From Phycisphaerales bacterium UBA1926 (GTDB lineage: Bacteria > Planctomycetota > Phycisphaerae > Phycisphaerales > UBA1924), in the NCBI GenBank assembly GCA_002337215.1, contig DDFO01000014.1:9931-33701 (forward strand): a DNA stretch of 23,771 bases. Reading direction: 5' to 3'. Shown here piece after piece: positions 7,348 to 23,771 of the stretch. Under the pieces are notes generated by a model. That model ran no database searches, had not been told where the DNA came from, and saw only the letters and a list, made by a program, of their open reading frames with translations. Position 1 is the stretch's first letter; every line of letters starts with the position of its first letter. The position numbers and the translations under genes are program-made.

Positions 7348-7430
7348 TGGGCGAGGAGGGATTCGAACCCCCGAAGACGTACGTCAGCAGATTTACAGTC
7401 TGCCCCCTTTGGCCACTTGGGTACTCGCCC
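7348..7430 (-). tRNA. tRNA-Tyr (anticodon GTA)
   Basis: The minus strand folds as an 83-nt class II tRNA. The acceptor stem GGGCGAG (from 7430) pairs with CTCGCCC, and the discriminator is A at 7348. The anticodon arm is CAGACTGTAAATCTG with anticodon GTA. A long variable arm (GACGTACGTC) and the T-arm GGGGGTTCGAATCCCTC follow. The 3' CCA is not encoded. Small reading frames across this stretch are by-products of the tRNA. A TATCAT-like -10 element sits about 22 nt before the 5' end (7452-7457). Confidence 0.95.
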
Positions 7431-10155: not shown

Positions 10156-10199
10156 CGGCGTCTCCTCCGCGGCCCGCGTTGCGCGGAGCCGTCCTCAAG

Positions 10200-10246
10200 C
10201 GTCCCGGGAGGGATTCGAACCCCCGACCGGCGGATTAGAAGCCCGC
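10200..10246 (-). repeat. Displaced 3' part of tRNA-Arg(TCT): element attachment site
   Basis: The minus strand reads as positions 27-73 of a tRNA. The anticodon stem is GCGGG/TCCGC with loop CTTCTAA (anticodon TCT), followed by the variable loop, the T-arm with loop TTCGAAT, the acceptor 3' strand CCGGGAC, and discriminator G. The matching 5' acceptor strand GTCCCGG and a D-arm are missing; the sequence upstream of the anticodon stem is unrelated (TTTTTCTT) and no partner is found within the next 200 nt. An adjacent tyrosine integrase makes this the classic displaced half of a tRNA att site. The full tRNA-Arg is predicted at the far end of the element, outside the window. Confidence 0.8.
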
Positions 10247-10343
10247 AAGAAAAACGCGAAAACCGCTATTTTTCCCGCTCGTAAAGGCGGGGCTTTCACC
10301 GACTAACCCCGGTGAGCAACCCCGAACGGCGGACCTCGGTCAC

Positions 10344-10349
10344 TATACT
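10344..10349 (+). promoter_or_regulatory. Possible -10 element for the integrase gene
   Basis: TATACT lies 35 nt before the preferred integrase start at 10384. No good -35 is seen. If used, transcription would begin near 10356, which excludes a start at 10312. Confidence 0.35.
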
Positions 10350-10383
10350 CGCACGGATTCTTGCCATGCCAGGACCCCGCAGC

Positions 10384-11628
10384 ATGCCACAAGCCAACAA
10401 GAAACACAACCTTCACACCCCCGCAGACGACGCCCCCGTCTGGCCCTTCCCCGAGATCGTCCGGCTCACCCCCATCGTCCGGCTCAACCAGTGGACCAAG
10501 AAGCACGCCGGCAAACGCTACTACTTCGGCACCCTCGACGACCCCGCCGCCGCGCTCCAGTGCTGGCGGCTCGACTGGCCCGCCATCACCGCCGGCGAGC
10601 CCCGCCCCACCCGCTCGACCGCCGGGCGGCCCGGCACCCCCGGGTGCCAGCTCCGACGCGTCATCGCCGCCCACCTCGAGTCGGTCGCACGCCGCGTCCG
10701 ACGCGGCGAGCTCGCCCCGCGCACCGCCCGCGAGTACGACGAGATCGCCGCCGTCGTCGACGACGAACTCGGCTCCCGACCCGTCGGCGCCCTCGGCCCC
10801 GTCGACTTCGAGAAACTCCTCGACGGCCGGTGGGGCGACCTCGCGCCCGACTCGCGCCGCAAACGCGTCACCCTCACCAAGGCGATCATCCGGGGCGGGT
10901 GCGACCTGCTCGAGGTCGAGCCCCCGAACTTCGGCAAGGGCTTCAAGAGCCCGCCGCAGAAGCTCATCCGCCGGCAGCGCCGCGAGTCGGTCGCCGGCAA
11001 GCACTTCGAACGCTGGGAGATCCGCCGCATGCTCGCCCGGTGCGACGCCCAGTCCCGCGAGCCGGGCCCCGCCGATTGGGCGACCAGCAAGGCGTGCATC
11101 CTGCTCGCGATCAACGGGGCCCTCGGGCAGAGCGAGATCGCGACGCTCCGCGCCGACCGCTGCGACCTGGGCGGCGGCTGGATCGACCAGGACCGGACCA
11201 AGACCGACGCCGAGCGACGCGTCCCCCTCTGGCCCGAGACCGTCGCCGCCATCAAGGCCGCCAGGGCATCACGCCGGGGCACGCCCGCCGCGCGGTCCCC
11301 CCTGCTGCTCACCACCAAGGCGGGCGGCCCGCTCGTGCACGGCAAGACCGACGGGATCGATCTCCGCTTCACCCGCATCCGCGACGGCGCCCTCGCCCGC
11401 CCGCGGGGGAGCTTCTACTGGTTCCGGCACACGTGGATCACCGTCTCGACCACCGCGGCCGTCCCCGCCGCCGAGCACGCCCGCAAGATCATCTGCGGGC
11501 ACGTCCTCACCGACGTGCACGACCGGTACGTGAGCGAGTTCCCGGCGGACATGCTGCGGGCCGTCAGCGACCACGTGCGGGCGTGGCTCTGGCCGAACCT
11601 CGCTCGACAGGGTGCGGCCGATTCCTGA
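10384..11628 (+). CDS. Tyrosine recombinase / integrase of the element
   Basis: This protein catalyses site-specific insertion and excision, here presumably at tRNA-Arg. With the start at ATG 10384 (AGGA 9 nt upstream) it has 414 aa. ATG 10366 and GTG 10312 are alternatives in the same frame. The N-terminal part contains WTKKHAGKRYYFG followed by DDPAAAL, a hallmark of planctomycete integrases. A core-binding helical domain covers about 90-200 and the catalytic domain about 205-395. Visible catalytic positions are the lysine in RTKTD (about 273), YWFR-HTW with Arg about 348, the histidine in ICGH (about 373) and the nucleophile Tyr about 382 in DRYV. The first catalytic arginine position appears to be Gln (GALGQSE, about 249), and the first HxxR histidine appears to be Tyr. 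It converges on the first of three paralogous genes. Confidence 0.88.
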   Translation: MPQANKKHNLHTPADDAPVWPFPEIVRLTPIVRLNQWTKKHAGKRYYFGTLDDPAAALQCWRLDWPAITAGEPRPTRSTAGRPGTPGCQLRRVIAAHLESVARRVRRGELAPRTAREYDEIAAVVDDELGSRPVGALGPVDFEKLLDGRWGDLAPDSRRKRVTLTKAIIRGGCDLLEVEPPNFGKGFKSPPQKLIRRQRRESVAGKHFERWEIRRMLARCDAQSREPGPADWATSKACILLAINGALGQSEIATLRADRCDLGGGWIDQDRTKTDAERRVPLWPETVAAIKAARASRRGTPAARSPLLLTTKAGGPLVHGKTDGIDLRFTRIRDGALARPRGSFYWFRHTWITVSTTAAVPAAEHARKIICGHVLTDVHDRYVSEFPADMLRAVSDHVRAWLWPNLARQGAADS

Positions 11629-11656
11629 CCGGCCCCCCCCCATCCTTCCGCGCGGG

Positions 11657-12445
11657 TCAGCCGGGGTGCCCGGAGGCGTCGCCCTCATCCGGCAGTAAAT
11701 CCGCCTCGAGCTTGCGGACCATCGCCATGGCGATGACCGTCGGACGCAGCACGGCCTCGTTGTGTTCCGGGTGCGTCCCGGTCGGCAGAATCGCGAGCAT
11801 CTCGTCGCAGATGGCGAGGCATACTTTGAGGTGCACCAAGATCTGCCTATGGATGATCTCGGGCCGGTAGGCCGGCACTTTGGTCGGGAGGATGATCAGC
11901 TCGCCGTCGCCGAGCTCGATGGCCGTTGCCGCGACATCGAGCACTGATTCGATCGTGCTCAGGTGCGTGTACTCGCTCAGCTCTCCGTACACCCGCGCGT
12001 ACTCCTCCCCGAGGGCCGCCGCGTGAGCGACACGCCTGGGGCCGCCGCCCTTCCTGCCGGGGAGTGGCCCCGCGGTGGCGGTCCTGATCTGTCGCAGCCG
12101 CGATGCGATCTCGAACTCATGCCGAACCACCGCGATCGCTCGCGAGCTGTAGCCGCCCAACAGAGCCGCCCGCGTGATCTCGACACCGGACACGAAGGCG
12201 TGGATCAGCAGCAGCCGCGCACGAAGCGACTCGTCGTCGCCGGGTGCCGAGTAGAACGGGACGAGTTGAAATCGCGAGAACGCCGCATTGATGAGGGCGA
12301 ACGCGTTGCCGAAGTCGTGGCCCATCGCCGCGTCGGCCTGCGCCCTGCTCGCGGCGGCGTACCCGTCCGCGCGTGAACCGAATCGCTTGCCCTCAACGAG
12401 CAAATCCTCGATCTCTTTGGTTGTGAAATTGAGCGTCTCAGCCAC
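11657..12445 (-). CDS. Paralogue A of a three-gene tandem family, unknown function
   Basis: This 262-aa protein is predicted to be almost entirely helical. Two blocks are shared with the two upstream genes at the same residue numbers: 88-121 (VEITRAALLGGYSSRA, then RHEFEIASRLRQIR) and 153-167 (YGELSEYTHLSTIES). A third, weaker block near 205-225 (HLKVCLAICDEMLAI) also aligns. No signal peptide or catalytic motif is recognised. The general layout, a hydrophobic helix with an acidic/arginine face followed by an 'LSxxxH' segment, recalls HEPN-like or DUF5677-like helical proteins, but this is only an impression. It is last in a minus-strand run C-B-A and converges with the integrase, 28 nt apart. 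Base composition is closer to the host than that of its two sisters. Confidence 0.8.
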   Translation of the reverse strand: MAETLNFTTKEIEDLLVEGKRFGSRADGYAAASRAQADAAMGHDFGNAFALINAAFSRFQLVPFYSAPGDDESLRARLLLIHAFVSGVEITRAALLGGYSSRAIAVVRHEFEIASRLRQIRTATAGPLPGRKGGGPRRVAHAAALGEEYARVYGELSEYTHLSTIESVLDVAATAIELGDGELIILPTKVPAYRPEIIHRQILVHLKVCLAICDEMLAILPTGTHPEHNEAVLRPTVIAMAMVRKLEADLLPDEGDASGHPG

Positions 12446-12502
12446 CGACCCATCGTACCGATTGTCAGGTGGGCGGCGGATCGGTCGCCGATTGCTGTCG
12501 GC

Positions 12503-13285
12503 TCAGTCCTCGGTGGCCGTCTTCGCCTTCCGCGCTTCGCTGTGTTTGAGGAGATAATGCTGCATCAGTGCCATCGACTGCCAGATTCGGTTCGCGGCAT
12601 CCTTGCTGCCGATCGTCTCCGCGAACTCGGCGACGTCCTCGAGGACATGAGCGCAGAAGACACAGTGCGCCTCCATCATTGCGGACGCCCAGTACTCAAC
12701 GAGCTCGGGCTCGATGCGGGCGACTTGCATTTCGCCCTCCCCCATGCCGGCCGGAACCGGCACTGTTCTCGTGGTAAAATCTGCGATAGCTTCGACGGAC
12801 GAGAGGTGAGCGATATCGCTCAGGTTTCCATACAGAACGTCGAAATTTTCATTGAGTGTCTTGGCGTGCGGGACCTTCTTTTTTCTGAATGCGCCGCTGT
12901 CTTTGAATTCGTATTTGCCCTCGCGGAGCAGGCGGATTCTCGAAGCATGCTCAATCTCTTGCCGAAGAAGTGCGGCAGCACGGATGTAGAACCCCTGGAG
13001 GATCGCGATGCGCGTGATCTGGCTCCCCGCGACGAAAGCGGTTGCGTAAACCAGGAACTGGGATCGTCCGTCTCTGTCGCTGAATTTGCCTTTAAATTTC
13101 AGCATCTCGACTTGGGAAAATCCCGCGTTGATTGCGAGAACCCCGAGGCGCATTGCCTCGCCAAATAAATCCTGGGTCTCCTGGCTCACGTCGGACGCGC
13201 ATTTGTAGATATGTCCATGGAACTGCTGACCAACACGCAATATCGCATCGCGATCTTCTGGACTCACCGTGATTCCGCCGTCCAT
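12503..13285 (-). CDS. Paralogue B of a three-gene tandem family, unknown function
   Basis: The frame is open up to 13555, but the ATG at 13285 is chosen. It gives 260 aa, avoids overlap with gene C, and puts the shared blocks at exactly the positions seen in A and C: SQITRIAILQGFYIRA (88-103), RQEIEHASRIRLLR (108-121) and YGNLSDIAHLSSVEA (152-166). An AAGGCGG lies about 11 nt upstream. The protein is helical. It has a Lys-rich stretch (about 122-140) between the two blocks, and the C-terminal block HCVFCAHVLEDVAEFAETIG contains two cysteines. The DNA is noticeably richer in A/T than neighbouring genes, with runs of T and A, which suggests later acquisition or a different donor. Function is unknown. 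Confidence 0.8.
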   Translation of the reverse strand: MDGGITVSPEDRDAILRVGQQFHGHIYKCASDVSQETQDLFGEAMRLGVLAINAGFSQVEMLKFKGKFSDRDGRSQFLVYATAFVAGSQITRIAILQGFYIRAAALLRQEIEHASRIRLLREGKYEFKDSGAFRKKKVPHAKTLNENFDVLYGNLSDIAHLSSVEAIADFTTRTVPVPAGMGEGEMQVARIEPELVEYWASAMMEAHCVFCAHVLEDVAEFAETIGSKDAANRIWQSMALMQHYLLKHSEARKAKTATED

Positions 13286-13346
13286 GTTGTTCACCGCCGC
13301 CTTGTCATGGGATGCGTATGAGCCGATACCAACGGCTTCGCCACCT

Positions 13347-14147
13347 TCAACCCGAGCCATCAGAGTCTTCGCTAACAGTACTGCCTGGATCGCCCTCACC
13401 AATCCGGTCTTGCAGCCTGAGCAGATACGTACCGCCGACCATCCCTGCCTTGACGATTGCGCGGGCGAGATCGAACTCGCCAGTATTGTTTGCGAATTCT
13501 GCAAGCTCTTCGCAGATGGAGCAGCACAACAGAAGATGGACCAACATATGGTCACGCGCTACCCAAGCTTTGAATCTCGGCTCGATAAGAGGCACCGCTA
13601 CTGATGCGGCACCTTCACGGATATGGATGTCCGCGCCAAGGCTGGTGATCGATTCGAGCGTTGAGGCGTGCGCATGCTCGCTGAGTTTGCCATAAAGCCG
13701 GCCGAGACGGCTGTCGAGGGTTGTCGGGGGGGCGACCTTTCGGCCGTCGAATCCCCCGCACGGCTTCACTTTGACCTCGTTGCGCCTGAATTGTCGCACA
13801 CGTGATGCGATCTCGAATTCCTGCCGGATCAGTGCCGCGGCGCGCATGTTGTAACCCCCGAGAATCGCGATGCGAGTCAACTGGGTACCGGCGATGAACG
13901 AACAAATGTACAGATTCCTGTGCGCGAGGGATCCAGGATCGGTGATGTTGCCGCTGTACTTCAGTTGCCGCGCGTAGGAAAATGCCGCGTCGAACGATTG
14001 GACAATCGGCTGGAACTCGTCACCAAATAGGGCCGATGCTTTTCGAGTCGATCTCGCTCCCGCGATGGCAACAAGCTGGCCGTACCGCTTGCCAGCGTCC
14101 ATGATCTCATCGAATTCCTTCCGATCTACGCCTTCAATCTCTTCCAT
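13347..14147 (-). CDS. Paralogue C of a three-gene tandem family, unknown function
   Basis: First gene of the C-B-A run, 266 aa. The ATG at 14147 has AGGA about 8 nt upstream. Shared blocks are TQLTRIAILGGYNMRA (88-103), RQEFEIASRVRQFR (108-121) and YGKLSEHAHASTLES (152-166). A C-terminal helical block (about 198-230, LLLCCSICEELAEFANNTGEF) resembles the corresponding part of B. The last residues are Ser/Gly/Asp-rich. The gap to B is 61 nt, so the three genes are probably one transcript. Its base composition is lower in GC than the integrase. No known domain is recognised. The position, beside the integrase on the opposite strand, is typical of cargo or defence genes of an integrated element. 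That role is inference. Confidence 0.8.
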   Translation of the reverse strand: MEEIEGVDRKEFDEIMDAGKRYGQLVAIAGARSTRKASALFGDEFQPIVQSFDAAFSYARQLKYSGNITDPGSLAHRNLYICSFIAGTQLTRIAILGGYNMRAAALIRQEFEIASRVRQFRRNEVKVKPCGGFDGRKVAPPTTLDSRLGRLYGKLSEHAHASTLESITSLGADIHIREGAASVAVPLIEPRFKAWVARDHMLVHLLLCCSICEELAEFANNTGEFDLARAIVKAGMVGGTYLLRLQDRIGEGDPGSTVSEDSDGSG

Positions 14148-14300
14148 GTGGTGATCCTACCCAGCCTTAAAGATCGGTCCCACTCCGAAGCTTCCGGACA
14201 TCCCACGTCCCCAGAATTGTTCCGCCGCAACTCCTTCACGCTATTTGCTCGGGATTTTCGCCGCATGCCTAGTGATCGCGACGAGTCACGTCGGCGGACT

Positions 14301-14422
14301 GCCGCGGGTGCCGCGGGTTTCCCATTGACTCCGTCTCGTGTGCACCGTTCTCAGTAATTCTTAGAATATCTCGGACCTTGATCTTCGCGCGTCGGGTATA
14401 GAAGACCCGCGGCACCCGCGGC
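14301..14422. repeat. 18-bp perfect inverted repeat built from paired CCGCGGGT iterons
   Basis: The left arm GCCGCGGGTGCCGCGGGT (14301-14318) is the exact reverse complement of the right arm (14405-14422), with an 86-nt spacer. Each arm is two direct copies of CCGCGGGT separated by one G. The spacer contains the local AT-rich patch. Confidence 0.8.
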
Positions 14423-14449
14423 TTTTGGACCGTCGCCCGCGCACGAGAA

Positions 14450-14486
14450 CGCGGCCCCGAGGGGACGCGGAGTCCCCGGGGCCGCG
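14450..14486. repeat. Long GC hairpin
   Basis: CGCGGCCCC pairs with GGGGCCGCG (9 bp), then a 2-nt bulge, then GGGGAC pairs with GTCCCC (6 bp) around a 5-nt loop. Its right arm overlaps a further CCGCGGGT copy (14482-14489). No T-tract follows. Confidence 0.6.
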
Positions 14487-14606
14487 GGTCGCGGCGTGTC
14501 CGCACGTTCGCTTTCGTCCCGGCCCGCCGTCTCTATGGGGGTTGGCCGGAGGCCAGCAGCAGCCGGCTATCTGCCATTCGATCCGGCGTCACCCGACCCG
14601 ATCCCA

Positions 14607-14630
14607 AAAAGTGCGCCGCGGCGCACTTTT
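14607..14630. terminator. 24-bp palindrome with A- and T-tracts, possible bidirectional terminator
   Basis: The half-site AAAAGTGCGCCG is followed immediately by its exact reverse complement, ending in TTTT. The layout suits a two-way rho-independent terminator between the C-B-A genes and the replication operon, although the hairpin has no free loop. A dimeric-protein binding site is the alternative. Confidence 0.45.
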
Positions 14631-14719
14631 CGCCCTCCGCATTCGGGGTCAACCCCGGCTCCGACCCCACCGGCTCCCCGCCGACATCGAGCGACCAGTC
14701 GACACCACCGGTTGCGGTG

Positions 14720-14749
14720 CCCAAATGTTTGTCATGACAAACATTTGGG
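14720..14749. repeat. 30-bp perfect palindrome
   Basis: The half-site CCCAAATGTTTGTCA is followed immediately by its exact reverse complement. It is AT-rich compared with its surroundings and has no mismatch. It could be an operator for a dimeric regulator, a recombination or nicking site, or a hairpin in RNA just past the end of the replication operon. Confidence 0.75.
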
Positions 14750-14830
14750 TGAACCCGCAATTAGCAGTTCCCCGCTAGGTCCCGAAGGTCGACATGCTTC
14801 TCGACGACGCCGGCATGCTCGGGGCGGGCT

Positions 14831-15094
14831 TCACGAGACCCCTCCCGCCTCGGCCGTTCGGATCGAATCGCGCAGCGATGCCCGGGCCTCGCGGATCTCG
14901 GTCCGCGCCGACTTCGGTCGCCTGGTTGACTTGGTGGGGGTCGCGGCCGATTCGCGGACCGGCTCGCGGAACATGATCCGGAGCCGTCCGTCACGCATCC
15001 GCGTCGTCTGGATCGAATTGCCCGAGCGGCGGGCGAGCCCGTCGAGCAGGGCGTCGAGCGGCGCGTGCTCGATGGTGTTGGCGATGTCGCTCAC
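14831..15094 (-). CDS. Small hypothetical protein at the end of the replication operon
   Basis: This 87-aa protein starts with GTG at 15094 after AGGGGGTG, a plausible ribosome site. The N-terminal half (MSDIANTIEHAPLDALLDG, then a short strand RLRIMFREPV) looks folded. The C-terminal half is basic and helical (about residues 50-87). The function is not recognised. The GTG overlaps a TGA stop of a longer upstream frame as GTGA (15091-15094), which may be translational coupling or chance. Its place downstream of the helicase suggests a replication accessory or DNA-binding role, but this rests on position only. Confidence 0.55.
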   Translation of the reverse strand: MSDIANTIEHAPLDALLDGLARRSGNSIQTTRMRDGRLRIMFREPVRESAATPTKSTRRPKSARTEIREARASLRDSIRTAEAGGVS

Positions 15095-15538
15095 GCGGCA
15101 CCCCCTGACGGGTTGCCGGTCTTGCCGGGTCGATGGGTGGTCTTCAATGGGCGTCCGATGATCCGCTGATCAGCCGCGTTCCCTTTCGCTTCATCGGGGC
15201 CGGATGTGAATCGCCCCCCGCCGGGGGCGACTCCGCCGGCCGGCCGATGTCGGCCTTCGGTGAGTCTGCATCGACCATACCGCGCGACGGGGCGAACGTC
15301 CCAACACGCGGCGTGCACGAAGGGCAGAAAGTGCGGATTCTCTCGAAACCTGCAAAACGCACCCGATTCGGCGGGTGACCTCGCTCGTTTCCCATCCGCG
15401 GAGCTTTCCGGGCGTGCACCCGACCGACCCAACTACCCGGCCCCATAGCCTAAGAATCGGCCCTCACTGGCCCGCAGGAGCGGTCGCCGGGTCCCCGTCG
15501 CCGCCGGGTTGCGGTCGGGTGGGGCGGGTACGCGCTCG
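15095..15538. other. 444-nt gap between helicase and small protein genes
   Basis: Two minus-strand frames cover part of it: 15091-15432 with a TTG start, and 15144-15446 with an ATG. Neither has a clear ribosome site or recognisable protein. A hairpin TCGCCCC/GGGGCGA lies at 15211-15230. TGCAAAACGC at 15351-15360 repeats a 10-mer found at 20781-20790. I cannot assign a function to this stretch. Confidence 0.4.
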
Positions 15539-17092
15539 TCATCCGGCCCCCGCGTCCGGCATGCCCGCGAGTTCATCGCGGGAGACCACTCGGTACTCGT
15601 CGTCGGGTCCAGGGTGGCCCGGCCTGCGGACCTCAAAGATGCGCTGCGTCGGACCGTCTCCGGTCGGGAGGCAGACCTCGTATCCGGCCGTCTCGAGCGC
15701 CGGCTTCAGACGCCGCAGGTCCCCGCTGAGCTTGCGGGGCGTGACCTTGAGTTCTTTCGGCGTATTCCCGGCCGGTGTGATCGCCGCGAGGATCTGCCCG
15801 GCGGTCCCTCGCACTGTGCCGGCTCGATCGACGACGGCGAGCAGGTAGGGCGTGATCGCGGAACTCTCGAGCACGTCCTCGGCGACCCGCAGCTCCTGAC
15901 CGCCGTACGTCGCCAGGGTGCTCGTGCCGGCGGTCTCGTCCATCGCGGCGAGGAACCGGGCGAAGTCCGCCATCCGCGGCATCTCCTCGAGCTCGACGGC
16001 GTCGATCACCGCGAGCGCGTCGGCGAATCGGTCGAGCAACGCGCCGAGGATCTTCGGGTGCGCGGACGCGAACTTGCGGGTGAGCTCCTCCTCGATGCGG
16101 CGTTGCCCGGCCGGGATCTGTGCGAGATCGGCGACCAGCATCCGCTCCGCGAAGTCGCCCCGGATCGCGGTGACTTCGATCGAGTTGAGGATCGCGGCCC
16201 TTCGGAAACTCGCGGCCGTCACGCCGCCGTTCGTGTACAGCTTCCGCTTGAGGAACCCTCCCCCCGTGCACAGGCGGCAAAGACTGTCCGACAGGTCGTT
16301 GCTGATCGCAGAGACGTTGTCGAGCAGGACGACACGCGAGCTCTGGGCCGCCATGATGAGCTGCTCGTTATCCCGCGGCGGCTGTCGGTCCTCGCAGGTG
16401 GTCGGATCAACAAGCCTCGCGAGCAGCCGCGTCGCCGAGCTTTTCCCCGTGCCCTGGCCCCCACTCAGCAGCAGGATCGGGCAGGGCGTCGCGGGTCGCC
16501 AGCACGCGAGCATCCACCCGACGACGATGTCGAGCTGCTCGGGCGCGAGATTGATGAACTCCCGCAAGGTGTCGATGTCACCGCCCCGCTCGGGCGTCGG
16601 CATCGCTCCGGTGAGCGGTGTTCGCCGGAACGGCGTCGGGGACCGGTCGAGCACGTCCCATCCCCCGCCGGTGACCCGGATCGCCCGGCCGGTCTCATCG
16701 CCGAGATCGATGACGGCCCCGGGCTCATCGCCGATCGCGGCGACGCGGATCGGGATCGGCTCGGCGTCGGCCTGCCTCGCTTCCGATTTGATCACACGCA
16801 TCGCGCTCGTGATCGCTTCGCCGGACGCCGCGTCCCCGGTGGAGGCGAAGTACGCCGCGGCGAGATCGTCATCGAAGGATCCGTCGTCAAGATCGGCGGC
16901 GATGTTCGGGCCCTCGCGCGGGATCGCGAAGAGCGCACCGCCCTCGCTGGATCTGGCGAATCGGTACCCGGCCCTCGCGAGCTCGATGAGCTTCTTGGCC
17001 GCGCTCGGCTTGCCGCTCCTGGCGGGCTCGTCGCTGACCTCGTGAACGGTGTAGCCCGCGGGGAGTTTGAATGGGTCGGTCGCCTGGGTCAT
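15539..17092 (-). CDS. P-loop ATPase, probable replicative helicase of the element
   Basis: The 517-aa protein has a central ATPase domain. Walker A is GGQGTGKS (211-218) and Walker B is VVLLDNVS (254-261). They are followed by a segment TGGGFLKRKLYTN (276-288) that resembles the DNA-contact hairpin of phage and plasmid replication ATPases. About 190 N-terminal residues precede it; they are rich in small beta segments and could recognise DNA or the primase. The C-terminal part (about 440-517) looks like a winged-helix region. The ATG at 17092 overlaps the stop of the preceding gene as ATGA. The role, unwinding at the element's origin, is inferred from the motifs and from the primase gene two positions upstream. 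No close named family is recognised. Confidence 0.75.
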   Translation of the reverse strand: MTQATDPFKLPAGYTVHEVSDEPARSGKPSAAKKLIELARAGYRFARSSEGGALFAIPREGPNIAADLDDGSFDDDLAAAYFASTGDAASGEAITSAMRVIKSEARQADAEPIPIRVAAIGDEPGAVIDLGDETGRAIRVTGGGWDVLDRSPTPFRRTPLTGAMPTPERGGDIDTLREFINLAPEQLDIVVGWMLACWRPATPCPILLLSGGQGTGKSSATRLLARLVDPTTCEDRQPPRDNEQLIMAAQSSRVVLLDNVSAISNDLSDSLCRLCTGGGFLKRKLYTNGGVTAASFRRAAILNSIEVTAIRGDFAERMLVADLAQIPAGQRRIEEELTRKFASAHPKILGALLDRFADALAVIDAVELEEMPRMADFARFLAAMDETAGTSTLATYGGQELRVAEDVLESSAITPYLLAVVDRAGTVRGTAGQILAAITPAGNTPKELKVTPRKLSGDLRRLKPALETAGYEVCLPTGDGPTQRIFEVRRPGHPGPDDEYRVVSRDELAGMPDAGAG

Positions 17093-17940
17093 GCTGGGTC
17101 GACCTCCTCGCCCAGGATCTCACGCACCCGATCGACCGATGTTTTGTAGCCGAAGATCGTGGCCCATGCGACCATCGGGGGCGGTGGATGACCGATGGCG
17201 ATGATCGCGGCCGCGATCGCCTCGAGCTCGGAGCAAGGCCGGATCGGGCCCGCCGAGTTCTCCCACCGGCCGACGAGGACGGGGCGGAGTGCGATCATCT
17301 CGGCGATGTCAACGTGGACCCCGGCGCCGCGCGTCCTCCCGACAAAGGGCGAGTCATCGAGCGCTGACGCGCGGATCAGCGATCGCCAGTCTGAGACAAC
17401 ATGGACCGCCGCCGGCGTGAGCCCGCCCGACGCTCGATCGAGCAACCACTCGAATGGGTTCTCCAGCCCGGTGGGGAGATAGAGCCCGTCGGGCGGTATG
17501 TAGCCCTCGATCCGGCACCCGTCTGGCCCGATGAGATCGAGCCCCGTCAGGATTCCGAGGCCCGAGTAAATCGGGATCACGAACCCGGTCGGGCAGTCCC
17601 CCCTGACCATGCGGCGGCCGCCGGCGGTGAGCACGCTCGCATCGACGTAGCCCGGTCCGAGGTCGATCCGCGAGTGCTCGGCTTCGGCCGCGATCGGCAC
17701 GATCTGCTTGAAACGCTCGGCGTGCTCCGGGTTCGATTCGAACGCCGCTCTCGCCTGGGCCAGGATCGTCTCGGGCAGGGCATCGAAGAACGCCCAGTGT
17801 CGATCGTCGCGGAGCATGCCCCGGTTCTTCAGCTCGCGTCGGCCGTCCGCCGTCCTCGAGAGTTCGCGGGCCTGTCGGAGGTCATCGACTGTCCCGGGGA
17901 TCTCCCGTCGATGCTGTTTCTTGCCTTTGGGTCCGTCCAT
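17089..17940 (-). CDS. Hypothetical protein of the replication operon, possible degenerate Toprim-like domain
   Basis: The frame is open to 18312, but the ATG at 17940 is chosen because AGGAG (17947-17951) lies 6 nt before it; the product is 283 aa. It overlaps the primase gene by 59 nt. The N-terminus is basic (MDGPKGKKQHRRE). A segment of about residues 100-200 (GFVIPIYSGLGILTGLDLI, then GPDGCRIEG, then YLPTG, then VHVVSDW) follows the order seen in phage primases: an 'IPI...G' sheet, a glycine-rich product strand, then a strand where Toprim domains carry their glutamate. Here that place reads VVSDW, so the site looks inactive. The C-terminal part is helical. The gene sits between primase and helicase. 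A structural or loader role is plausible but unproven. Confidence 0.7.
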   Translation of the reverse strand: MDGPKGKKQHRREIPGTVDDLRQARELSRTADGRRELKNRGMLRDDRHWAFFDALPETILAQARAAFESNPEHAERFKQIVPIAAEAEHSRIDLGPGYVDASVLTAGGRRMVRGDCPTGFVIPIYSGLGILTGLDLIGPDGCRIEGYIPPDGLYLPTGLENPFEWLLDRASGGLTPAAVHVVSDWRSLIRASALDDSPFVGRTRGAGVHVDIAEMIALRPVLVGRWENSAGPIRPCSELEAIAAAIIAIGHPPPPMVAWATIFGYKTSVDRVREILGEEVDPA

Positions 17941-18880
17941 CGGGGTCTCCTGCGGTGGCCTGCCTTGCGAGCCATTCGCGCGTGTCTTTGCAGTCCGCCG
18001 GGGGCATCGCCATCCGCAGCGGCTCGGTCTTCCATGCCTTGCCCAGGTCGATCGCGACGGCCTTTGCGCCGTCGCGACCCGGCCAGGCTCCGTTTTTCTT
18101 CTTGTCGTTCTCGCCGATCGCGATGGCATCACGCCCGCGGAGCAGATCCGCGAGCATGCGAACGATCGCCTTGCCGGCCTTCGCGCTCGGCCGCCCCACC
18201 GCCGGGTATCCCGCGGTGATCGCCGCCGCGGTGTCGCTCGCCCCCTCAACGACCCAGACCGCGCCCTCGAGTTCGCCGATCGTGTCGGGGTAAAACAACC
18301 CGAGCCGGCCACCCTTCAGCGTCATCTTCTTGCCGCCATCGACCGGACGGGTGTTGATCCCGACGATCCGGCCCGCCGCGTCGCGCATCGGGAACGTCCA
18401 TGCGTCGGCCCTCGCGAGCGGTGCCCCGAGGTGCTCGTTGATGTCCGCGACCGTCGCGTACCCGACGCGCAGCAGCCGCAACGCGTCCGCCCCGACACCG
18501 AGCAGGCTCGCGAGATCCTCGACCCGAGCATCGGTCGCCTGGGACTCGAAACGCTGCTGCATCGGTGCCCAGTCGATCACCGGTCGATCGTCTCGCGGGT
18601 ACCGCGTCCGCGTGCCGCGCTGCCGGGGTGATCCGTCCGAGCGGGTCGACGCGAACCCGTCCCGGCTCGAGAGCCCGAGCGATCTCATGACCTCGCCGTA
18701 CCGGCAACCGGCGTGACAGCACACGAGCACGCGGCCGTCGTCGCCCCGGCTCACGCTCAGGCTGGGCGACGAATCCTCGTGTGATGGGCACCGGGCGGAC
18801 CACCTGGAGCCGCCGCCGGTCGGGCCGCAGCCCGCCTCGGCGAGCGCGTCGATGATGGTGCGCAGCGGGTCATCGCTCAC
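17882..18880 (-). CDS. DNA primase with CHC2-type zinc finger and Toprim domain
   Basis: The 332-aa protein starts with GTG 18880, which overlaps the preceding stop as GTGA; AGGGGGG lies about 11 nt upstream. The zinc ribbon is visible: CPSHEDSSPSLSV (C31, H34) and VCCHAGC (C55, C59). A helical linker follows, then the strand FPMRDAAGRIVGINTR (about 163-178) leading into Toprim. The Toprim glutamate is in VWVVEGASD (E212). The second acidic motif reads IGENDKKKNG (E257, D259), and KDTREWL near 298-304 ends the domain. Primases make the RNA primers for replication; here it would serve the element. The frame is open to 19186, but that upstream part is inside the HTH genes. It is compact compared with bacterial DnaG. 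Confidence 0.85.
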   Translation of the reverse strand: MSDDPLRTIIDALAEAGCGPTGGGSRWSARCPSHEDSSPSLSVSRGDDGRVLVCCHAGCRYGEVMRSLGLSSRDGFASTRSDGSPRQRGTRTRYPRDDRPVIDWAPMQQRFESQATDARVEDLASLLGVGADALRLLRVGYATVADINEHLGAPLARADAWTFPMRDAAGRIVGINTRPVDGGKKMTLKGGRLGLFYPDTIGELEGAVWVVEGASDTAAAITAGYPAVGRPSAKAGKAIVRMLADLLRGRDAIAIGENDKKKNGAWPGRDGAKAVAIDLGKAWKTEPLRMAMPPADCKDTREWLARQATAGDPDGRTQRQETASTGDPRDSR

Positions 18881-19077
18881 GGACGGGTACCCCCCCTGGC
18901 GACGAAGTCCTCGAGCTCGCGACGGGGGATGAGCACCCTTCGGTTCGCGTGTACCGCACCGAGTTCGCCCCGCTTGATCAGCCGGCGGACCGTCCGCTCG
19001 GAGACCGCGAGGATGTTCGCGGCCTCGGCGATCGAATTCATCTGCCGCTCGTGCGCGGGTGGGGTTCGGCCGATCAT
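18877..19077 (-). CDS. Small HTH protein, excisionase (Xis)-like
   Basis: The 66-aa protein has a helix-turn-helix over about residues 14-40 (SIAEAANILAVSERTVRRLI) and then the typical RVLIPRRELEDFV wing of MerR/excisionase-type proteins. The ATG at 19077 overlaps the previous stop as ATGA (19074-19077). It could direct excision together with the integrase or regulate the operon. It is the second of two neighbouring HTH proteins. Confidence 0.8.
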   Translation of the reverse strand: MIGRTPPAHERQMNSIAEAANILAVSERTVRRLIKRGELGAVHANRRVLIPRRELEDFVARGGTRP

Positions 19078-19316
19078 GCCGGCACCTCTGGGGCGATCGG
19101 GCCGAGGCGACCGTGGTGCAGGGCATTGAGGTCTGAGAGACGGAGTCGCGTCGACCGACCGACACGGACAAAGGGCAGCGTTCCATCGTCGACGAGGGCC
19201 GCGAGGCGGGCCGGCGTCGTAGTCAGGAGCAGGGCCGCGGTGTGAACATCGATGAGCCGCGGATACCGGTCTGGGATCGCGGGCGGCAACGGTTCGAGAG
19301 ACGGGGTTGCAAACAT
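19074..19316 (-). CDS. Small HTH protein, excisionase-like, first gene of the replication operon
   Basis: The 80-aa protein has an HTH-17-like region of about residues 19-65 (RLIDVHTAALLL, then ARLAALVDDGTLPFVRVG, then RLRLSDLNAL). The ATG at 19316 has an excellent AAGGAG (19323-19328) with a 6-nt spacer, the best ribosome site of the operon, which fits a leading gene. With its neighbour it forms a pair of related small DNA-binding proteins. It may be a regulator rather than the true Xis. Confidence 0.75.
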   Translation of the reverse strand: MFATPSLEPLPPAIPDRYPRLIDVHTAALLLTTTPARLAALVDDGTLPFVRVGRSTRLRLSDLNALHHGRLGPIAPEVPA

Positions 19317-19392
19317 TCTGGGCTCCTTGTCGATACGGACTGCTCAGGCAGTGCCGCTCGTGACAGGAGTACCAGCCGTCATCGATGTAGTC

Positions 19393-19410
19393 GTCACGAA
19401 AAATCGCGAC
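19393..19410. promoter_or_regulatory. Imperfect inverted repeat upstream of the replication operon
   Basis: GTCACGA (19393-19399) and TCGCGAC (19404-19410) match as an inverted repeat with one mismatch around AAAA. It lies 77 nt before the first gene of the operon, a suitable place for an operator of one of the HTH proteins. Confidence 0.3.
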
Positions 19411-19450
19411 GGATGGGTGTTATTCGCATTCGCCGAACTTGATCGTTGGC

Positions 19451-20653
19451 TTATTTTCTGGGGGCCAATGAAGCCCAGTCTTTCGACAGCGACACCAGGA
19501 CCGGGCCGAACGTCTCGCCCTTCCCGCTCGGCTCTGCCTGGCCCCAATAGAGGGCAGCATCATCGACACGGGATCTGTTGAAGCGGATGGCGGAAAGTGT
19601 GTCCGAAATCCGCTTCGCCTTCGTTCCGTCTCGCCCGCGAGACCGATCACCCGAAGAATGGCCGGGAGGGGCCGAGTGACTGAGGGCGTTTCGGATCGTC
19701 CCCTTGGAAACGGCACCCTCGCCGATGCACTCCGCGTAGGTGTTCAAATCGGTAATCCGTTCCTCGGTCAGAGGAGTCCCATCACCGCCATCCGACGTGG
19801 CGTGGTTGAGAAGCCTTCTCGCTGCTGCGAGCCGCTCGCCTTTGGCCTCCGAGCGTTTGGACGCCTCCCGGATCTCGCCGAGGTGCGCTTCAATCTCACG
19901 GAGCGACGCACGGACCCCGGCATCCGTAGAACGGTCGAAGCGAACACCGCTGTCGAAAGTCGCGGCCCATGCGAAGTAGTCCGCGACGGTGCCGGGGTCG
20001 GACGGCAGGCCCTCGATCTGGCCTCGGAGGCGTGCGAGCGTCTCTGGATGTAGCTCGGCCTGGAGATTGCGCAACATGTCCTGATCGAACCGGGGCTCGA
20101 ATTGAAACGGGCTGCAGATCCGGCCGACGTATTGGATCAGCCCGACGGGTGCCAATCGCGGTTCGCTGTCATCGGTTAGGGAGAGCGTCCCGCGGTTACG
20201 GTTCCGGATCGACTCAAGCTCGGCCTCCAAAAACTCATCTCGGCTTGTGTCGTGGATCGCCCACGCACGATCGATCAGCGTGATGATCTCGGCGAACCGA
20301 CTAAATGCTCCGATGTGATCCTCGCCGAGTTCGTCAATCGCGAGGTCGGCCGCCATCCACCGATCTGATTCGTCGGCGTGGCACTGGGGGAAGTCGTCGC
20401 AGTCAGAGCTTGCAAGGAAGCTGATATGCCGAGCGATCACGATCGAGGCGAAGATCGGCTGGCCGGCGTGGGGCTCGACGTGCTCCGCGTAGGTCGCATT
20501 CGCACGGTCGATCCCGGCCCGGACCGCATCGATCGCGTGCTTCCGCCGTTCAGACATCGGGTCGGCGAACTCCCGCAGGACCCGCTCGACCTGGTCCCAA
20601 TCGATCTCGCTCCTCGGCGAGACCGGTCCGATCTTCATCGACAGTGCGCTCAT
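19451..20653 (-). CDS. Uncharacterised 400-aa element protein
   Basis: The start is ATG 20653, with GGGAG 6 nt upstream; the frame is open to a GTG at 20683 that has no ribosome site. The protein looks soluble and mostly helical and acidic. A His/Cys cluster occurs in the first third (ARHISF, then SDCDDFPQCH). A charged helix of about 260-300 (LREIEAHLGEIREASKRSEAKGERLAAARRLL region) could be a coiled coil. The segment after it, ITDLNTYAECIGEGAVSKGTIRNALS, looks like a helix-turn-helix with recognition helix SKGTIRNAL, so DNA binding is possible. It ends 134 nt before the replication operon, in the same direction, and starts opposite to the plus-strand genes. It could be a switch regulator. 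Function is not recognised. Confidence 0.75.
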   Translation of the reverse strand: MSALSMKIGPVSPRSEIDWDQVERVLREFADPMSERRKHAIDAVRAGIDRANATYAEHVEPHAGQPIFASIVIARHISFLASSDCDDFPQCHADESDRWMAADLAIDELGEDHIGAFSRFAEIITLIDRAWAIHDTSRDEFLEAELESIRNRNRGTLSLTDDSEPRLAPVGLIQYVGRICSPFQFEPRFDQDMLRNLQAELHPETLARLRGQIEGLPSDPGTVADYFAWAATFDSGVRFDRSTDAGVRASLREIEAHLGEIREASKRSEAKGERLAAARRLLNHATSDGGDGTPLTEERITDLNTYAECIGEGAVSKGTIRNALSHSAPPGHSSGDRSRGRDGTKAKRISDTLSAIRFNRSRVDDAALYWGQAEPSGKGETFGPVLVSLSKDWASLAPRK

Positions 20654-21064
20654 CGCATGCTCCCGTGTGCGGTCCGTGCTCACTAGACCAACATACTTAC
20701 CACATGCGACCTGATCCGTCCGCGCCTCGCCGTGGAATCCGGCCGCATCACACTAAAAAACACGAGAAATTCGCGTTTCTTGCAAAACGCGAACTGGCCT
20801 GCTCGCGACCGCGACCCATCGCCACCTTGCCCCCGAGCCAACAATGATGCTGCCAAATTGCTCGCACGCGAATAACCCGCCTCGATCGCAGTTCGCGCAC
20901 GCCGCGTTCGGCTCGTCGTGTGGTTAGATGTCGGTGCAATGAATCCCAACCACTCAACGACAACCGGGCCGGCTCGATCGGTGGCGTCCTTTCCGCCGTC
21001 CATCGGGAATGCATTGCCCGCCGCCGATCGGTCGGCCCCGCTGTCGTTGCGAAAGGACGATCAC
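20654..21064. other. Divergent intergenic region
   Basis: This 411-nt gap sits between oppositely transcribed genes and must hold promoters for both directions. No strong -35/-10 pair is clear; a TATGTT-like -10 on the minus strand lies at 20690-20695. It is relatively A/T-rich (20750-20800) and contains the inverted repeat at 20770-20793. Confidence 0.5.
20770..20793. promoter_or_regulatory. 9-bp perfect inverted repeat, candidate operator
   Basis: TTCGCGTTT (20770-20778) and AAACGCGAA (20785-20793) are exact reverse complements around a 6-nt spacer. The site sits midway between divergent genes. The right half AAAACGCGAA recurs at 10251-10260 beside the att site. Confidence 0.5.
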
Positions 21065-21583
21065 ATGACCACCGCTGAAACCAAGACCGAACCGATGTCG
21101 CTGGGAGCCCGCTTCGCCCAGGTCCTCACCAAGCGACACCGAGACATGTCGCCGCGGGCGACTGCGACCATCGATCGGCTGATCCGGCGAGACCCGGAAA
21201 AACTCTCCGACGCCGAGGTCAACCAACTGATCGAGGCGTTCGAGATTCTCGATCTCCGGTCGCTTCGCGTGACTTGGTCCGATCTGAAGCCGGCAAAGCT
21301 CATCGAGGCCGTGCGGGCCAAGGTGCTCGGTACCGATCGGAGCCGTGAGCGGATCCTCGAGATCGCGGCGACTCGTGAAGACCTGGAAGCGGACATCCTC
21401 GAGCTCGAGGAGCGGAGGCTCGCCGCTGTCGCCGAGTGCGAGGCCGCCGAGCGACGCGTCGCCGAAGCCGACGCGAAACTCGCCCAGCGCAGGAACGATC
21501 GCAAAGCGAGAGCGGACCTGATTCGTGCATACAACACGGACCGTCGCAACTTCGAGCACCTGCCGTTTCAGGAGGTGGAGTAG
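21065..21583 (+). CDS. Coiled-coil hypothetical protein
   Basis: The 172-aa protein starts at ATG 21065 with AAGGA 7-8 nt upstream; the frame is open to 20918 without a ribosome site. Residues about 30-90 are helical (RATATIDRLIRRDPEKLSDA, then VNQLIEAFEIL). Residues about 95-155 are a long charged coiled coil with heptad leucines and alanines (LEADILELEERRLAAVAE). It has no signal or membrane segment. It is the first gene of the plus-strand unit and its TAG stop overlaps the next start by one base. A structural or assembly role in a phage-like late operon is possible, but it is not recognised. Confidence 0.75.
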   Translation: MTTAETKTEPMSLGARFAQVLTKRHRDMSPRATATIDRLIRRDPEKLSDAEVNQLIEAFEILDLRSLRVTWSDLKPAKLIEAVRAKVLGTDRSRERILEIAATREDLEADILELEERRLAAVAECEAAERRVAEADAKLAQRRNDRKARADLIRAYNTDRRNFEHLPFQEVE

Positions 21584-22134
21584 TGCCGACGGAACCAGGA
21601 CAACTCATCCGTGCTCAAGAGCGTGCACGACGGGCGCGCGAGGCGGCGGCCGCGAGCAAGACTGGGCCCTCGACCAAGGCGGGCGATGTTCTTCGCGCCG
21701 GGGCTCGCAAGGCTCGATCCGATCGATTGAAGTCGGAGAAGGCGAAGCCGGCGAAGAAGCAGCTGAGCCCGCCGAAGGCGTCGCCGCAACCCTCGACCGT
21801 CTCCGCCGGCGCCGTGTTCTACGCACTGCTGAGCCGCGAGGCGGAGCAGCGAGGCAGAGACTCGGCGTCTCGTTCGGCTGCCAAAACGTGGAAGGCCGTT
21901 GCGGATGCGCACCCGGCGATCCGCGAAGCGTTCGTCGCGGAGGAACGGGCGGGCGTGCCCTGGCGTCGGCACCTCGACTGCCGGGCCGAGTCGAAACTGC
22001 CCGCGGCGGAGGCGTGCGCCGACTACGTCACGACGGGCCTGTCGCTCGACGCGGCCCGCCGACGCATCGGCGAGCGGTGTCCGAACATCAGTGAGCATCA
22101 CCGCGCGGCGACCGAGCCGATCGCGCGATTCTGA
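21583..22134 (+). CDS. Basic hypothetical protein coupled to the coiled-coil gene
   Basis: The 183-aa protein starts with GTG at 21583, which shares its G with the preceding TAG stop; GGAGG lies about 7 nt upstream. The N-terminal 75 residues are disordered and rich in Lys, Arg, Ala and Pro (SEKAKPAKKQLSPPKASPQP). The C-terminal half looks folded and helical (AVFYALLSREAEQRG, then KTWKAVADAHPAIREAFVAE, then a final LSLDAARRRIGE helix). The basic tail suggests nucleic-acid contact. No family is recognised. Confidence 0.7.
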   Translation: MPTEPGQLIRAQERARRAREAAAASKTGPSTKAGDVLRAGARKARSDRLKSEKAKPAKKQLSPPKASPQPSTVSAGAVFYALLSREAEQRGRDSASRSAAKTWKAVADAHPAIREAFVAEERAGVPWRRHLDCRAESKLPAAEACADYVTTGLSLDAARRRIGERCPNISEHHRAATEPIARF

Positions 22135-22231
22135 TTCGTTGGCTCGTCCCGCCCACGGCGGCCCTCGCTGGCGGCCGAGGGTGTTTGCCGGAGTTCCTTT
22201 CGTGCAGCGCGGTCATGCCGTGACGCATTCG

Positions 22232-22263
22232 CCTCCCTGGGGATCCCATGCCCCCCAGGGGGG
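22232..22263. repeat. GC hairpin
   Basis: CCTCCCTGGGG (22232-22242) pairs with CCCCAGGGGG (22253-22263), one G-T pair, around a 10-nt loop. Confidence 0.5.
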
Positions 22264-22276
22264 GATTTGGTGCCCC

Positions 22277-22314: not shown

Positions 22315-22343
22315 GGGGGTTGGTCATGCCCCCCGGGTCTCCG

Positions 22344-22373: not shown

Positions 22374-22400
22374 ATTCAGGCGTCGGCACGCCGGACCTTG

Positions 22401-22512: not shown

Positions 22513-23771
22513 ATGCCCGACATCGTGACGACACTCGGCGCCGACGTTTCTGATCTCAAGGGCGGACTGCGACAGGCCGCACGCGAATACGAATCGCACA
22601 AGCGCGAGGTCTCTCGGATCGATCGGAAGTTCGGGGCCGACGCTGCCCGCGAGTTCGATCGCATCATCGGCAAGCAGAGGGCGATGCAGGACGGCCAGAA
22701 TCGGTTTGCCCGCGCGGCGGGTCGGATGGCGGGGCGCGTCAAGGCCCACTGGGGGACGATCACCACTGTGATGGCCGCGGGGACGGCCGCGATGGCGGGT
22801 GGGATCGCTATGGCCGAGCGGTCGGTGAGCCGGTATGCCGAGCGGTACGAGTTCGCGGCCCGGCGCATTGAACTCGCGAGCGTCCGGATGGCCAAAGGCC
22901 GGGATAAATTCGACCGGAACATTTTTCTGACCTACGACACCGCGGATCCCGGGTCGGTCGGCTCGTCGCTCTACGGCGCAGCCGCGGCGGTGCAGGACTA
23001 CCTCGCCGGCCTGGCCCGCGGCGGGGCGTACGGGGGATTCGATGAGATCGAGAAGACCAACCGCGGGCTCGACCGAGCGGAGCGGGTCGACCGGAACATC
23101 GTCAATGCGCGGAACGACCGCATGCTCCGCGCGTCGGACCGCGCGCGGCTGTTCTCTGAGCGTGGCCTGACGGGTGCGGCGACGATCGAGAAACTCCGGC
23201 TCCAGAAATTCGGCGAGTCGCAGAAACTCAACAGCGCAAACATCAACGCGGGCCAGCGGATGGACGCGATCGCCCGGCTTGAGGCGTCGTTCGAGCGGAT
23301 GGCCCAGCGGTTCGAGCGGTTCGACGCCTCGGTCGACGCCGAGCGGGGGTACCGGTCGGCCGGGCTGCGGGCCGACGACGGGACCGTCGCCGGCAGGTTC
23401 CGGTCGCGTCGGAACATCATCCTCGCCGAGGCGGAGGCGTCGCGGCGGGGGATCGAGACCGGGGACGGGACGCCCGAGAGCCGGGCCGAGGCGCTCGAGC
23501 TGCTCGAGCTGCAGACCAAGCGACGCATCGATGCGCTCAACCGCGAGCGCGACACGCAGGCCGCGATCGCCCGGATCGAACGCGACCGCGTCGGGCTGAT
23601 CGGGCAGGTCGGATTCGACGCCCGGCGGCGGATGGCCGCCAGCGAGGCCGAGCTCGCCCGGGCCCGGGCCCGCGGGACCATCACCGACGGGTTCGCACTC
23701 GCCGACGAGCTCGCCCGGATCGACGCGACCGAGTCGTCGACGCTCGCGGGGATCGGACGCGACGAGGCGGG
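22513..23771 (+). CDS. Phage tail tape-measure-like protein, partial at right edge
   Basis: The frame is open from ATG 22513 to the window end (419 codons seen). No good ribosome site precedes this ATG. Residues 1-40 (TLGADVSDLKGGLRQAAREY, then KREVSRIDRKF) match the way many tail tape-measure proteins begin: a short strand, 'D-x-S-x-x-x-x-G-L', then a long helix. Residues about 81-100 are a hydrophobic, Ala/Gly-rich stretch. The rest is long charged helix with heptads and many Arg, as in tail-length rulers. In phage tails this protein sets tube length and enters the host envelope. No tail tube, terminase or capsid gene is seen before it, so another coiled-coil protein is an alternative. Confidence 0.6.
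   Translation, partial: MPDIVTTLGADVSDLKGGLRQAAREYESHKREVSRIDRKFGADAAREFDRIIGKQRAMQDGQNRFARAAGRMAGRVKAHWGTITTVMAAGTAAMAGGIAMAERSVSRYAERYEFAARRIELASVRMAKGRDKFDRNIFLTYDTADPGSVGSSLYGAAAAVQDYLAGLARGGAYGGFDEIEKTNRGLDRAERVDRNIVNARNDRMLRASDRARLFSERGLTGAATIEKLRLQKFGESQKLNSANINAGQRMDAIARLEASFERMAQRFERFDASVDAERGYRSAGLRADDGTVAGRFRSRRNIILAEAEASRRGIETGDGTPESRAEALELLELQTKRRIDALNRERDTQAAIARIERDRVGLIGQVGFDARRRMAASEAELARARARGTITDGFALADELARIDATESSTLAGIGRDEA

What the first reader, a model, noticed from the sequence alone, without database searches (positions are those of the whole stretch)
11657..14147. Cassette of three tandem paralogues of an unrecognised helical protein family
Genes C, B and A (266, 260 and 262 aa) are divergent, yet they keep two sequence blocks at identical residue numbers: [RH][QH]E[FI]Ex-ASR-x-R at 108-121 and YG-x-LS-x(3)-H-x-S[TS]-x-E at about 152-167. 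So the first 150 residues have no net length change. Keeping three copies on a mobile element suggests distinct partners, a hetero-oligomer or diversified recognition, as in defence or addiction cargo. The fold may be HEPN/DUF5677-like, but no known catalytic motif is seen.
Basis: partly seen in the sequence, partly recalled or inferred. Interest (0 to 1): 0.75.

Follow-up and report, generated by a model that had tools for sequence, protein, structure and literature searches.

The report
Three-gene cargo of a mobile island
Three related genes of an undescribed protein family sit in the swappable cargo slot of a mobile DNA island, and their distant relatives elsewhere ride on plasmids, phages and transposons, some beside antiviral genes, so they are probably an uncharacterised defence module.

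Summary

The host is a 16,036-bp element in tRNA-Arg(UCU) with 47-bp att repeats, integrase and replication genes. Congener G398 has a syntenic element with different genes in the integrase-adjacent slot; in G397 a related integrase has an empty slot. So the trio is exchangeable cargo.

Some relatives adjoin DUF4238 (a tested anti-T7 protein) or lie near HamA, Gabija, AbiEii or ArdC. Defence is the best reading, not shown. The model is a confident eight-helix bundle without a solved match. DUF5677 kinship is limited to one aligned motif; the HEPN motif is not a family feature.

The parts
10195..10241 (.). attL: 47-bp copy of the 3' part of tRNA-Arg(UCU); identical to the site at the far end (contig C32:36161-36207, outside the window), where the intact tRNA gene lies
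10312..11628 (+). tyrosine integrase (438 aa)
   Evidence: phrog_1 E 5e-19; Pfam PF00589 E 3e-5, 24.2 bits, below its cut-off of 27.1
11657..12445 (-). gene A, 262 aa, third gene of the cargo operon; G+C 66%
12503..13285 (-). gene B, 260 aa; G+C 56%
13347..14147 (-). gene C, 266 aa, first gene of the cargo operon; G+C 57%; modelled (pLDDT 83)
14148..14830 (.). 683-bp intergenic region upstream of C with a 30-bp perfect palindrome (14720-14749), a 24-bp perfect palindrome (14607-14630) and a 25-bp inverted repeat, 88% complementary (14301-14325 / 14398-14422); possible control region
   Evidence: no Rfam match
14831..15094 (-). orf87, small protein that bounds the cargo slot on the side away from the integrase
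   Evidence: homologue beside the integrase in L074 (tblastn E 2e-6); orf79 in L075 taken as its counterpart by position only (no tblastn hit there)
15539..17092 (-). P-loop ATPase of the replication module, called helicase-like here (517 aa); 59% identical in the syntenic element of G398
   Evidence: weak matches only: Pfam AAA_16 19.1 bits under cut-off 32.6, phrog_1156 DNA primase E 4e-4; in six of seven other loci fetched its homologue lies beside or within an ORF with a primase match
17089..17940 (-). second replication-module ORF (283 aa from the ATG at 17940), overlapping the primase gene; unknown
   Evidence: counterpart by position in L075 at 9598-10509; no PHROGs match for the longer ORF
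17882..19186 (-). DNA primase
   Evidence: phrog_6088 E 2e-19; PADLOC RTasDnaG-like E 2e-6; Zn_ribbon_DnaG under cut-off
19074..19316 (-). excisionase-like HTH (80 aa)
   Evidence: TIGR01764 27.1 bits, just under cut-off 28.8
19451..20683 (-). 410-aa protein of unknown family; a 407-aa ORF lies at the same place in L075 (similarity not detected)
20918..21583 (+). 221-aa protein, unknown; weak match in L075 (E 0.008)
21436..22134 (+). 232-aa protein, conserved in L075 (36% over 91 residues)
22513..23771 (+). ORF running off the window, conserved N-terminus in L075 (48% over 58 residues); unknown
   Evidence: no PHROGs or Pfam match

Best explanation
C, B and A are the cargo operon (read C to B to A) of a 16-kb satellite-like integrative element in tRNA-Arg, placed in the element's swappable slot between integrase and replication module. 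They are three old duplicates of an undescribed all-helical family that elsewhere occurs as a single gene, often on mobile DNA. Most likely they protect the host or the element against phages or rival elements. Proposed mechanism (inferred): each protein is an eight-helix bundle whose conserved basic residue R/K108, E112, Y152 and H160 in helices 4 and 5 form a common binding or active pocket, probably for nucleotide or RNA as in HEPN-like proteins. The poorly conserved helices 1, 6, 7 and 8 bind different partners or triggers, so that three copies widen recognition or build a mixed oligomer that stops growth on infection. Shown: mobility context, slot, paralogy, model confidence, conserved core. 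Inferred: operon, defence, pocket, division of labour.
For: Element and slot: att repeats, tRNA-Arg, integrase and primase; the slot is 3,202 bp here, 2,846 bp with other genes in congener G398, 2 bp beside a related integrase in G397. Base composition of B and C: 56-57% G+C against 63-73% for the other element genes. Rarity: 1 of 397 class genomes with A4, 1 of 392 phylum genomes with A7, the one being its own. The trio profile hits 26 of 26 relative loci at E 0.0014 or better (E for that set of ORFs); profile-profile Prob 99.2, E 1.7e-19. Relatives: 1 bp after a DUF4238 gene in L009 (likewise L011, L019, L020), and a single DUF4238 protein gave strong resistance to T7 (PMC9122126, passage). 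HamA (Hachiman) in L009, AbiEii in L014, GajA and GajB (Gabija) in L023, ArdC in L026, Tn7-like genes in L022. All three copies keep G98, A103, R108, E112, Y152, S156, H160 and P190.
Against: No functional data for any member. The neighbour survey covers 22 chosen proteins for the 13 genome-collection loci and has no background rate; in 5 of the 13 (L021, L024, L025, L029, L031) nothing mobile or defensive was seen. Of ten chosen neighbours scanned against PADLOC three gave no match. None of the three window proteins is in PADLOC-DB. Away from the core the trio departs from the family: of 25 columns invariant in 10 representative relatives A keeps 9, B 14 and C 11, so function need not be shared. 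No promoter consensus upstream. The host assembly is 74% complete.
Confidence: 0.5

Rival explanations
1. The trio serves the element itself: control of excision, copy number, superinfection exclusion between sister elements, or interference with a helper phage, rather than defence of the cell.
For: It sits directly beside the integrase (28-bp gap); the 683-bp upstream region has two long perfect palindromes that could be operators; phage relatives sit just before the terminase genes.
Against: The syntenic element of G398 does without it and has other genes in the slot; relatives occur with unrelated mobility systems (plasmids, Tn7-like genes, prophages).
Confidence: 0.22
2. Toxin-antitoxin-like addiction: one or two copies are toxic and the third neutralises them.
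For: Short array of three diverged paralogues on a mobile element; helical proteins without assigned catalytic motif.
Against: All three copies keep the same conserved core, and the 26 relatives are single genes of the family without a constant partner (DUF4238 neighbour in 4 of 26).
Confidence: 0.13
3. Accessory metabolism or regulation unrelated to conflict (for example a ligand-binding helical protein).
For: Function wholly untested; the conservation pattern fits any binding pocket; some loci show only ordinary neighbours among those scanned (L021, L025, L031).
Against: Patchy distribution, often on mobile DNA, and rarity in the class and phylum.
Confidence: 0.15

Closest known systems
DUF5677 (Pfam PF18928)
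   Same: Y-x2-LS-x3-H-type motif aligns (hhalign score 24.3 for the trio and 25.6 for its relatives, against best shuffled 11.7 and 16.8); an R or K followed further on by a conserved H in 32 of 32 segments, as R/K108 and H160 here
   Different: No Pfam match; alignment probability only 6-8% over about 30 columns, motif 1 not aligned; the R and H are a median of 113 residues apart there (98-130) and 45 here (44-53)
HEPN superfamily (PMC3710099)
DUF4238 single-gene anti-phage system (PMC9122126)
   Same: Genetic neighbour of single-copy relatives on rhizobial DNA, 1 bp apart in L009
   Different: Different protein: the Pfam DUF4238 model does not hit the trio or the relatives scanned; not seen beside the trio
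P4-like satellites and other prophage hotspots of anti-phage genes (PMC9122126)
   Same: A small slot (1-5 kb in that paper) of high gene turnover between two conserved genes of an integrative element; integrase plus replication genes (for P4 recalled)
   Different: No recognised packaging or capsid gene and no known helper; different hosts; the P4 slot lies next to cos

Membership tests
DUF5677 (PF18928) | match to the Pfam model over its cut-off of 27.1 bits | tested here: not met
   no DUF5677 hit at E<=1 for A, B or C or for 4 full-length and 1 partial relatives; my own DUF5677 profile gives A E 0.51 only
DUF5677 (PF18928) | profile-profile relation | tested here: inconclusive
   motif 2 only, Prob 6.5-7.7%, score above the 79 column shuffles that ran (of 80)
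HEPN superfamily | conserved R-x4-6-H motif | tested here: not met
   R198 with H204 in 20 of 34 distinct sequences; B lacks the R, A has a shifted R-x4-H. Some HEPN families also lack the motif (PMC3710099, passages)
HEPN superfamily | HEPN fold | tested here: inconclusive
tRNA-integrating element with tyrosine integrase | integrase next to a direct repeat of a tRNA 3' end, intact tRNA at the other end | tested here: met
phage satellite (P4-like, PICI) | own replication module and excisionase | tested here: inconclusive
   primase by PHROGs, P-loop ATPase with weak matches only; excisionase HTH just below cut-off
phage satellite (P4-like, PICI) | packaging or capsid-remodelling genes, induction by a helper phage | not testable with these tools
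   no head, packaging or tail PHROGs hit at E<=0.1 among the element proteins scanned, but the far end was only partly readable; helper dependence needs an experiment
known anti-phage defence systems | match to a PADLOC-DB model | tested here: not met
   0 families for A, B, C at E<=1

The most novel reading that the evidence does not exclude
A new defence family, sharing one motif with DUF5677, in which a single-gene system (one copy in each of the 26 relative loci found) has become a three-paralogue system: one conserved helical core with three recognition surfaces, perhaps a hetero-oligomer, carried as interchangeable cargo of a group of tRNA-targeting satellite-like elements for which two narrow paper searches found no description.
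Probability: 0.2. Interest if true: 0.75.

Novelty: new variant of a known kind. Interest (0 to 1): 0.5.

Why it matters
It links an apparent orphan trio to a real, unnamed protein family found on plasmids, prophages and beside Tn7-like genes and gives that family a conserved core to test. It also points to an exchangeable cargo slot in a tRNA-integrated element whose helicase-like gene has relatives in 28 of 248 genomes of the class, its own included. Slots of this kind have been productive places to find new anti-phage systems (PMC9122126, passages).

Tried and rejected
First homology searches failed and would have left the trio as an orphan: alignment A1 against 5.8 billion proteins (7,999 candidates scored, none; as C itself, which is in that database, was not returned, this search was not sensitive), C alone (only itself), A1 against genome contigs and viral contigs (none). 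The way in was tblastn of C against plasmids (5 weak records, best E 7e-4), then L009, L008 and L007 as queries. A phage hit (Gordonia Gsput1, 2 records, E 0.02) was not followed; L009 had no match in phages.

Structure: a first model from three sequences had pLDDT 65; its Foldseek and VIA rows (BAR domains, vinculin tail, designed bundles) were set aside in favour of those of the 30-sequence model. No PDB or BFVD match at E<0.1; absence of a match does not show a new fold. PDB sequences: two chance-level rows (best E 0.11).

HMM comparison with alignment A7 and all of its shuffles was invalid (stale output file). In one search the A7 alignment failed in local mode and its 40 shuffles gave nothing; the A7 global row there (1 aligned column) is meaningless.

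Considered and set aside: a tape-measure-like reading of the ORF at 22513 (no PHROGs or Pfam support); an RNA gene in the upstream region (no Rfam match in 10100-23771); the 30-bp palindrome as a genome-wide operator (its inner 22 bp occur at this one site only with up to 3 mismatches); the helicase-like gene as viral (no relative in viral contigs). Of the seven other loci of that gene that I fetched (L096-L102), five have a tRNA gene overlapped by the end of a tyrosine integrase gene, L102 one overlapped by a serine recombinase gene, and L101 no tRNA in the stretch and no integrase looked for; there the integrase points towards the tRNA, unlike in the window, so these are cousins rather than the same element.
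Full report
What was checked. The three genes exist at the stated places, all on the minus strand, separated by 61 bp (C-B) and 57 bp (B-A), and so probably form one operon read C, B, A. They are paralogues: local alignment scores of 208 to 328 against shuffled maxima of 56 to 72. Motif 1 begins at residue 108 in all three, motif 2 at 152 or 153. The genome held has no fourth copy.

Where they sit. A 47-bp repeat of the 3' end of tRNA-Arg(UCU) lies at 10195-10241, and its second copy, at the intact tRNA gene, lies 16,036 bp further on, outside the window. Between them are a tyrosine integrase, the trio, a small ORF (orf87), a P-loop ATPase that I call helicase-like (weak matches only), a primase, an excisionase-like HTH and several unknown proteins. 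All 3 genomes held for the genus have a related integrase. In G398 it belongs to a syntenic element of 15,405 bp in tRNA-Arg(CCU), with 44-bp repeats, the helicase-like protein 59% and the primase 56% identical; between integrase and the small ORF that sits where orf87 does lie 2,846 bp of different genes. None of four ORFs of that stretch has a Pfam hit over cut-off. In G397 a related integrase lies 2 bp from an orf87 homologue, without cargo; the rest of that 9.3-kb contig gave no match to the other element proteins. The trio therefore occupies an exchangeable slot. B and C are also lower in G+C (56-57%) than the other element genes (63-73%). The helicase-like gene has relatives in 28 of 248 genomes of the class at E 1e-10, its own included. 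In six of the seven loci that I fetched, the end of an integrase or recombinase gene overlaps a tRNA gene beside the module: tyrosine integrase in L096-L100, serine recombinase in L102; in L101 no tRNA was found. I call the element satellite-like; neither a helper phage nor packaging genes were found.

The family. Profile libraries do not know the three proteins (one chance-level PHROGs row, E 0.38, and two chance-level NCBIfam rows, E 0.19 and 0.33, for A), and the first homology searches were empty (one search found only C itself). A weak tblastn match on plasmids led to relatives in Xanthomonas, Methylocystis, Rhizobium, Agrobacterium, Shinella, Ponticoccus, Sulfurospirillum and Paracoccus plasmids, to 30 proteins without Pfam domains, to 13 genome contigs and to 4 viral contigs. 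A profile built from the trio alone finds a member in all 26 loci fetched (9 plasmid, 13 genome, 4 viral), the weakest at E 0.0014, and the family profile finds one member in each (in L011 split over two reading frames) and no second one. The stretches reach at most about 6 kb to each side and some contigs end sooner, so a more distant second copy is not excluded. Some of the 26 are not independent: L028 and L034 show the same match in contigs of equal length, and L026 and L027 differ little. Profile-profile comparison of trio and relatives gives Prob 99.2 and E 1.7e-19 over 178 columns. In the tree of 37 rows the trio is one side of a branch with support 100/100 and deep branches inside, so the duplications look old; many rows are long, so finer order is unsure. 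Searches with the family alignments found no genome but its own among 397 of the class (A4) or 392 of the phylum (A7).

Structure and conserved core. With 30 sequences in the alignment AlphaFold2 gives C at pLDDT 83 and pTM 0.79, as eight helices. In 34 distinct sequences G98, A103, E112, Y152, H160 and P190 never vary, R108 is R or K, S156 is S or N; all three window copies keep R108 and S156 too. Elsewhere the trio goes its own way: of 25 columns invariant in 10 representative relatives A keeps 9, B 14 and C 11, and of 40 columns conserved at 80-99% each keeps 12, against 8-12 of 86 at variable columns. Among A, B and C themselves helices 3, 4 and 5 are most alike (6/23, 11/22 and 4/14 positions identical in all three); helices 1, 6, 7 and 8 differ most (1/33, 1/15, 3/37, 0/27). 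A shared pocket in helices 4 and 5 with variable outer helices is my inference; no coordinates were at hand to test it. Solved structures give nothing decisive.

Kinship. Against 32 DUF5677 segments, motif 2 aligns with a score of 24.3 (trio) or 25.6 (relatives), above 40 of 40 and 39 of 39 column shuffles that ran (best 11.7 and 16.8), but the probability is below 8%, only about 30 columns are involved, and motif 1 is not aligned. DUF5677 does have an R or K before and an H in its motif in 32 of 32 segments, but a median of 113 residues apart, against 45 here. None of the members tested matches the Pfam model. The HEPN definition in PMC3710099 (passages) rests on R-x4-6-H. At the one aligned place that I counted, R198 with H204, it is present in 20 of 34 sequences and not in B. 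I therefore file the family under neither.

Neighbours of the relatives. The plasmid and viral sets are biased by their collections. In the 13 genome-collection loci, 8 have a mobile or defence gene within about 6 kb: L019 and L020 (DUF4238 directly upstream, by BLAST to the gene in L009; L020 also an integrase), L022 and L023 (Tn7-like genes scanned in L022, TniB over its Pfam cut-off, TnsA-like and TnsB-like (rve, Mu-transpos_C) just under theirs, with homologous ORFs in L023; Gabija GajA and GajB in L023), L026 and L027 (ArdC; L026 scanned, L027 has a homologous ORF), L028 (phage genes homologous to those scanned in L035) and L030 (IS200-like transposase). In L021, L024 (a Y-family DNA polymerase, not counted), L025, L029 and L031 none was seen. 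Only 22 chosen neighbours of these 13 loci were scanned, and there is no background rate. On plasmids the strongest cases are L009 (DUF4238 gene 1 bp upstream, integrase, HamA of Hachiman 4.6 kb away) and L014 (AbiEii, restriction-like genes). DUF4238 as a single protein gave strong resistance to T7 in E. coli (PMC9122126, passage) and is listed as a defence system in PMC12629846 and PMC10855318 (passages).

Reading. Shown: paralogy, cargo slot in a tRNA element, membership of an unnamed family that is often on mobile DNA, retained core in all copies, single-copy state in every relative locus found. Inferred: defence as the function (about one in two), a common pocket, and division of labour among the three copies. 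Rivals are service to the element itself, an addiction module, or an unrelated accessory role. A triple set is so far seen only in this island, which is the surprising part, and a plain phage challenge would test it.

Limits. The host genome is 74% complete and no name was given; from gene content I would guess a planctomycete (recalled, not tested). Complex prediction was not possible. The papers searched are an open-access subset; the only DUF5677 paper there is unrelated to function (search listing), and searches joining phage satellites with planctomycetes returned none.

Noticed in passing
14607-14630 and 14720-14749: Two long perfect palindromes (24 and 30 bp) in the intergenic region upstream of C, far longer than any other in the in-window part of the element (next longest 16 bp); the inner 22 bp of the longer one occur once in the genome. 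Possible operators or an origin.
   Followed up: partly
L026:1-12744 and L027:1-12744: Contigs labelled Methylopila jiangsuensis and Brevundimonas diminuta share ORFs at identical coordinates across the 12.7-kb stretch around the family member: recent transfer or contamination.
   Followed up: no
L077-L102: The helicase-like gene of this element has relatives in 28 of 248 class genomes, many inside a longer ORF with a primase match; six of seven loci looked at have a tRNA gene overlapped by an integrase or recombinase gene at one end of the module, with from none to several small ORFs between. A group of integrative elements worth describing.
   Followed up: partly
L022, L023: The family member lies near Tn7-like genes in two Rhodobacterales genomes; the other side differs, with a helicase in one and Gabija in the other.
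   Followed up: partly
L028, L032-L035: In a Rhodobacteraceae phage group a single-copy member sits just before the terminase genes (after DNA methyltransferase genes in L033 and L035) and carries K instead of R108 and MN instead of LS in motif 2.
   Followed up: partly
7348-7430: tRNA-Tyr gene in the host flank, not the att site of this element.
   Followed up: no
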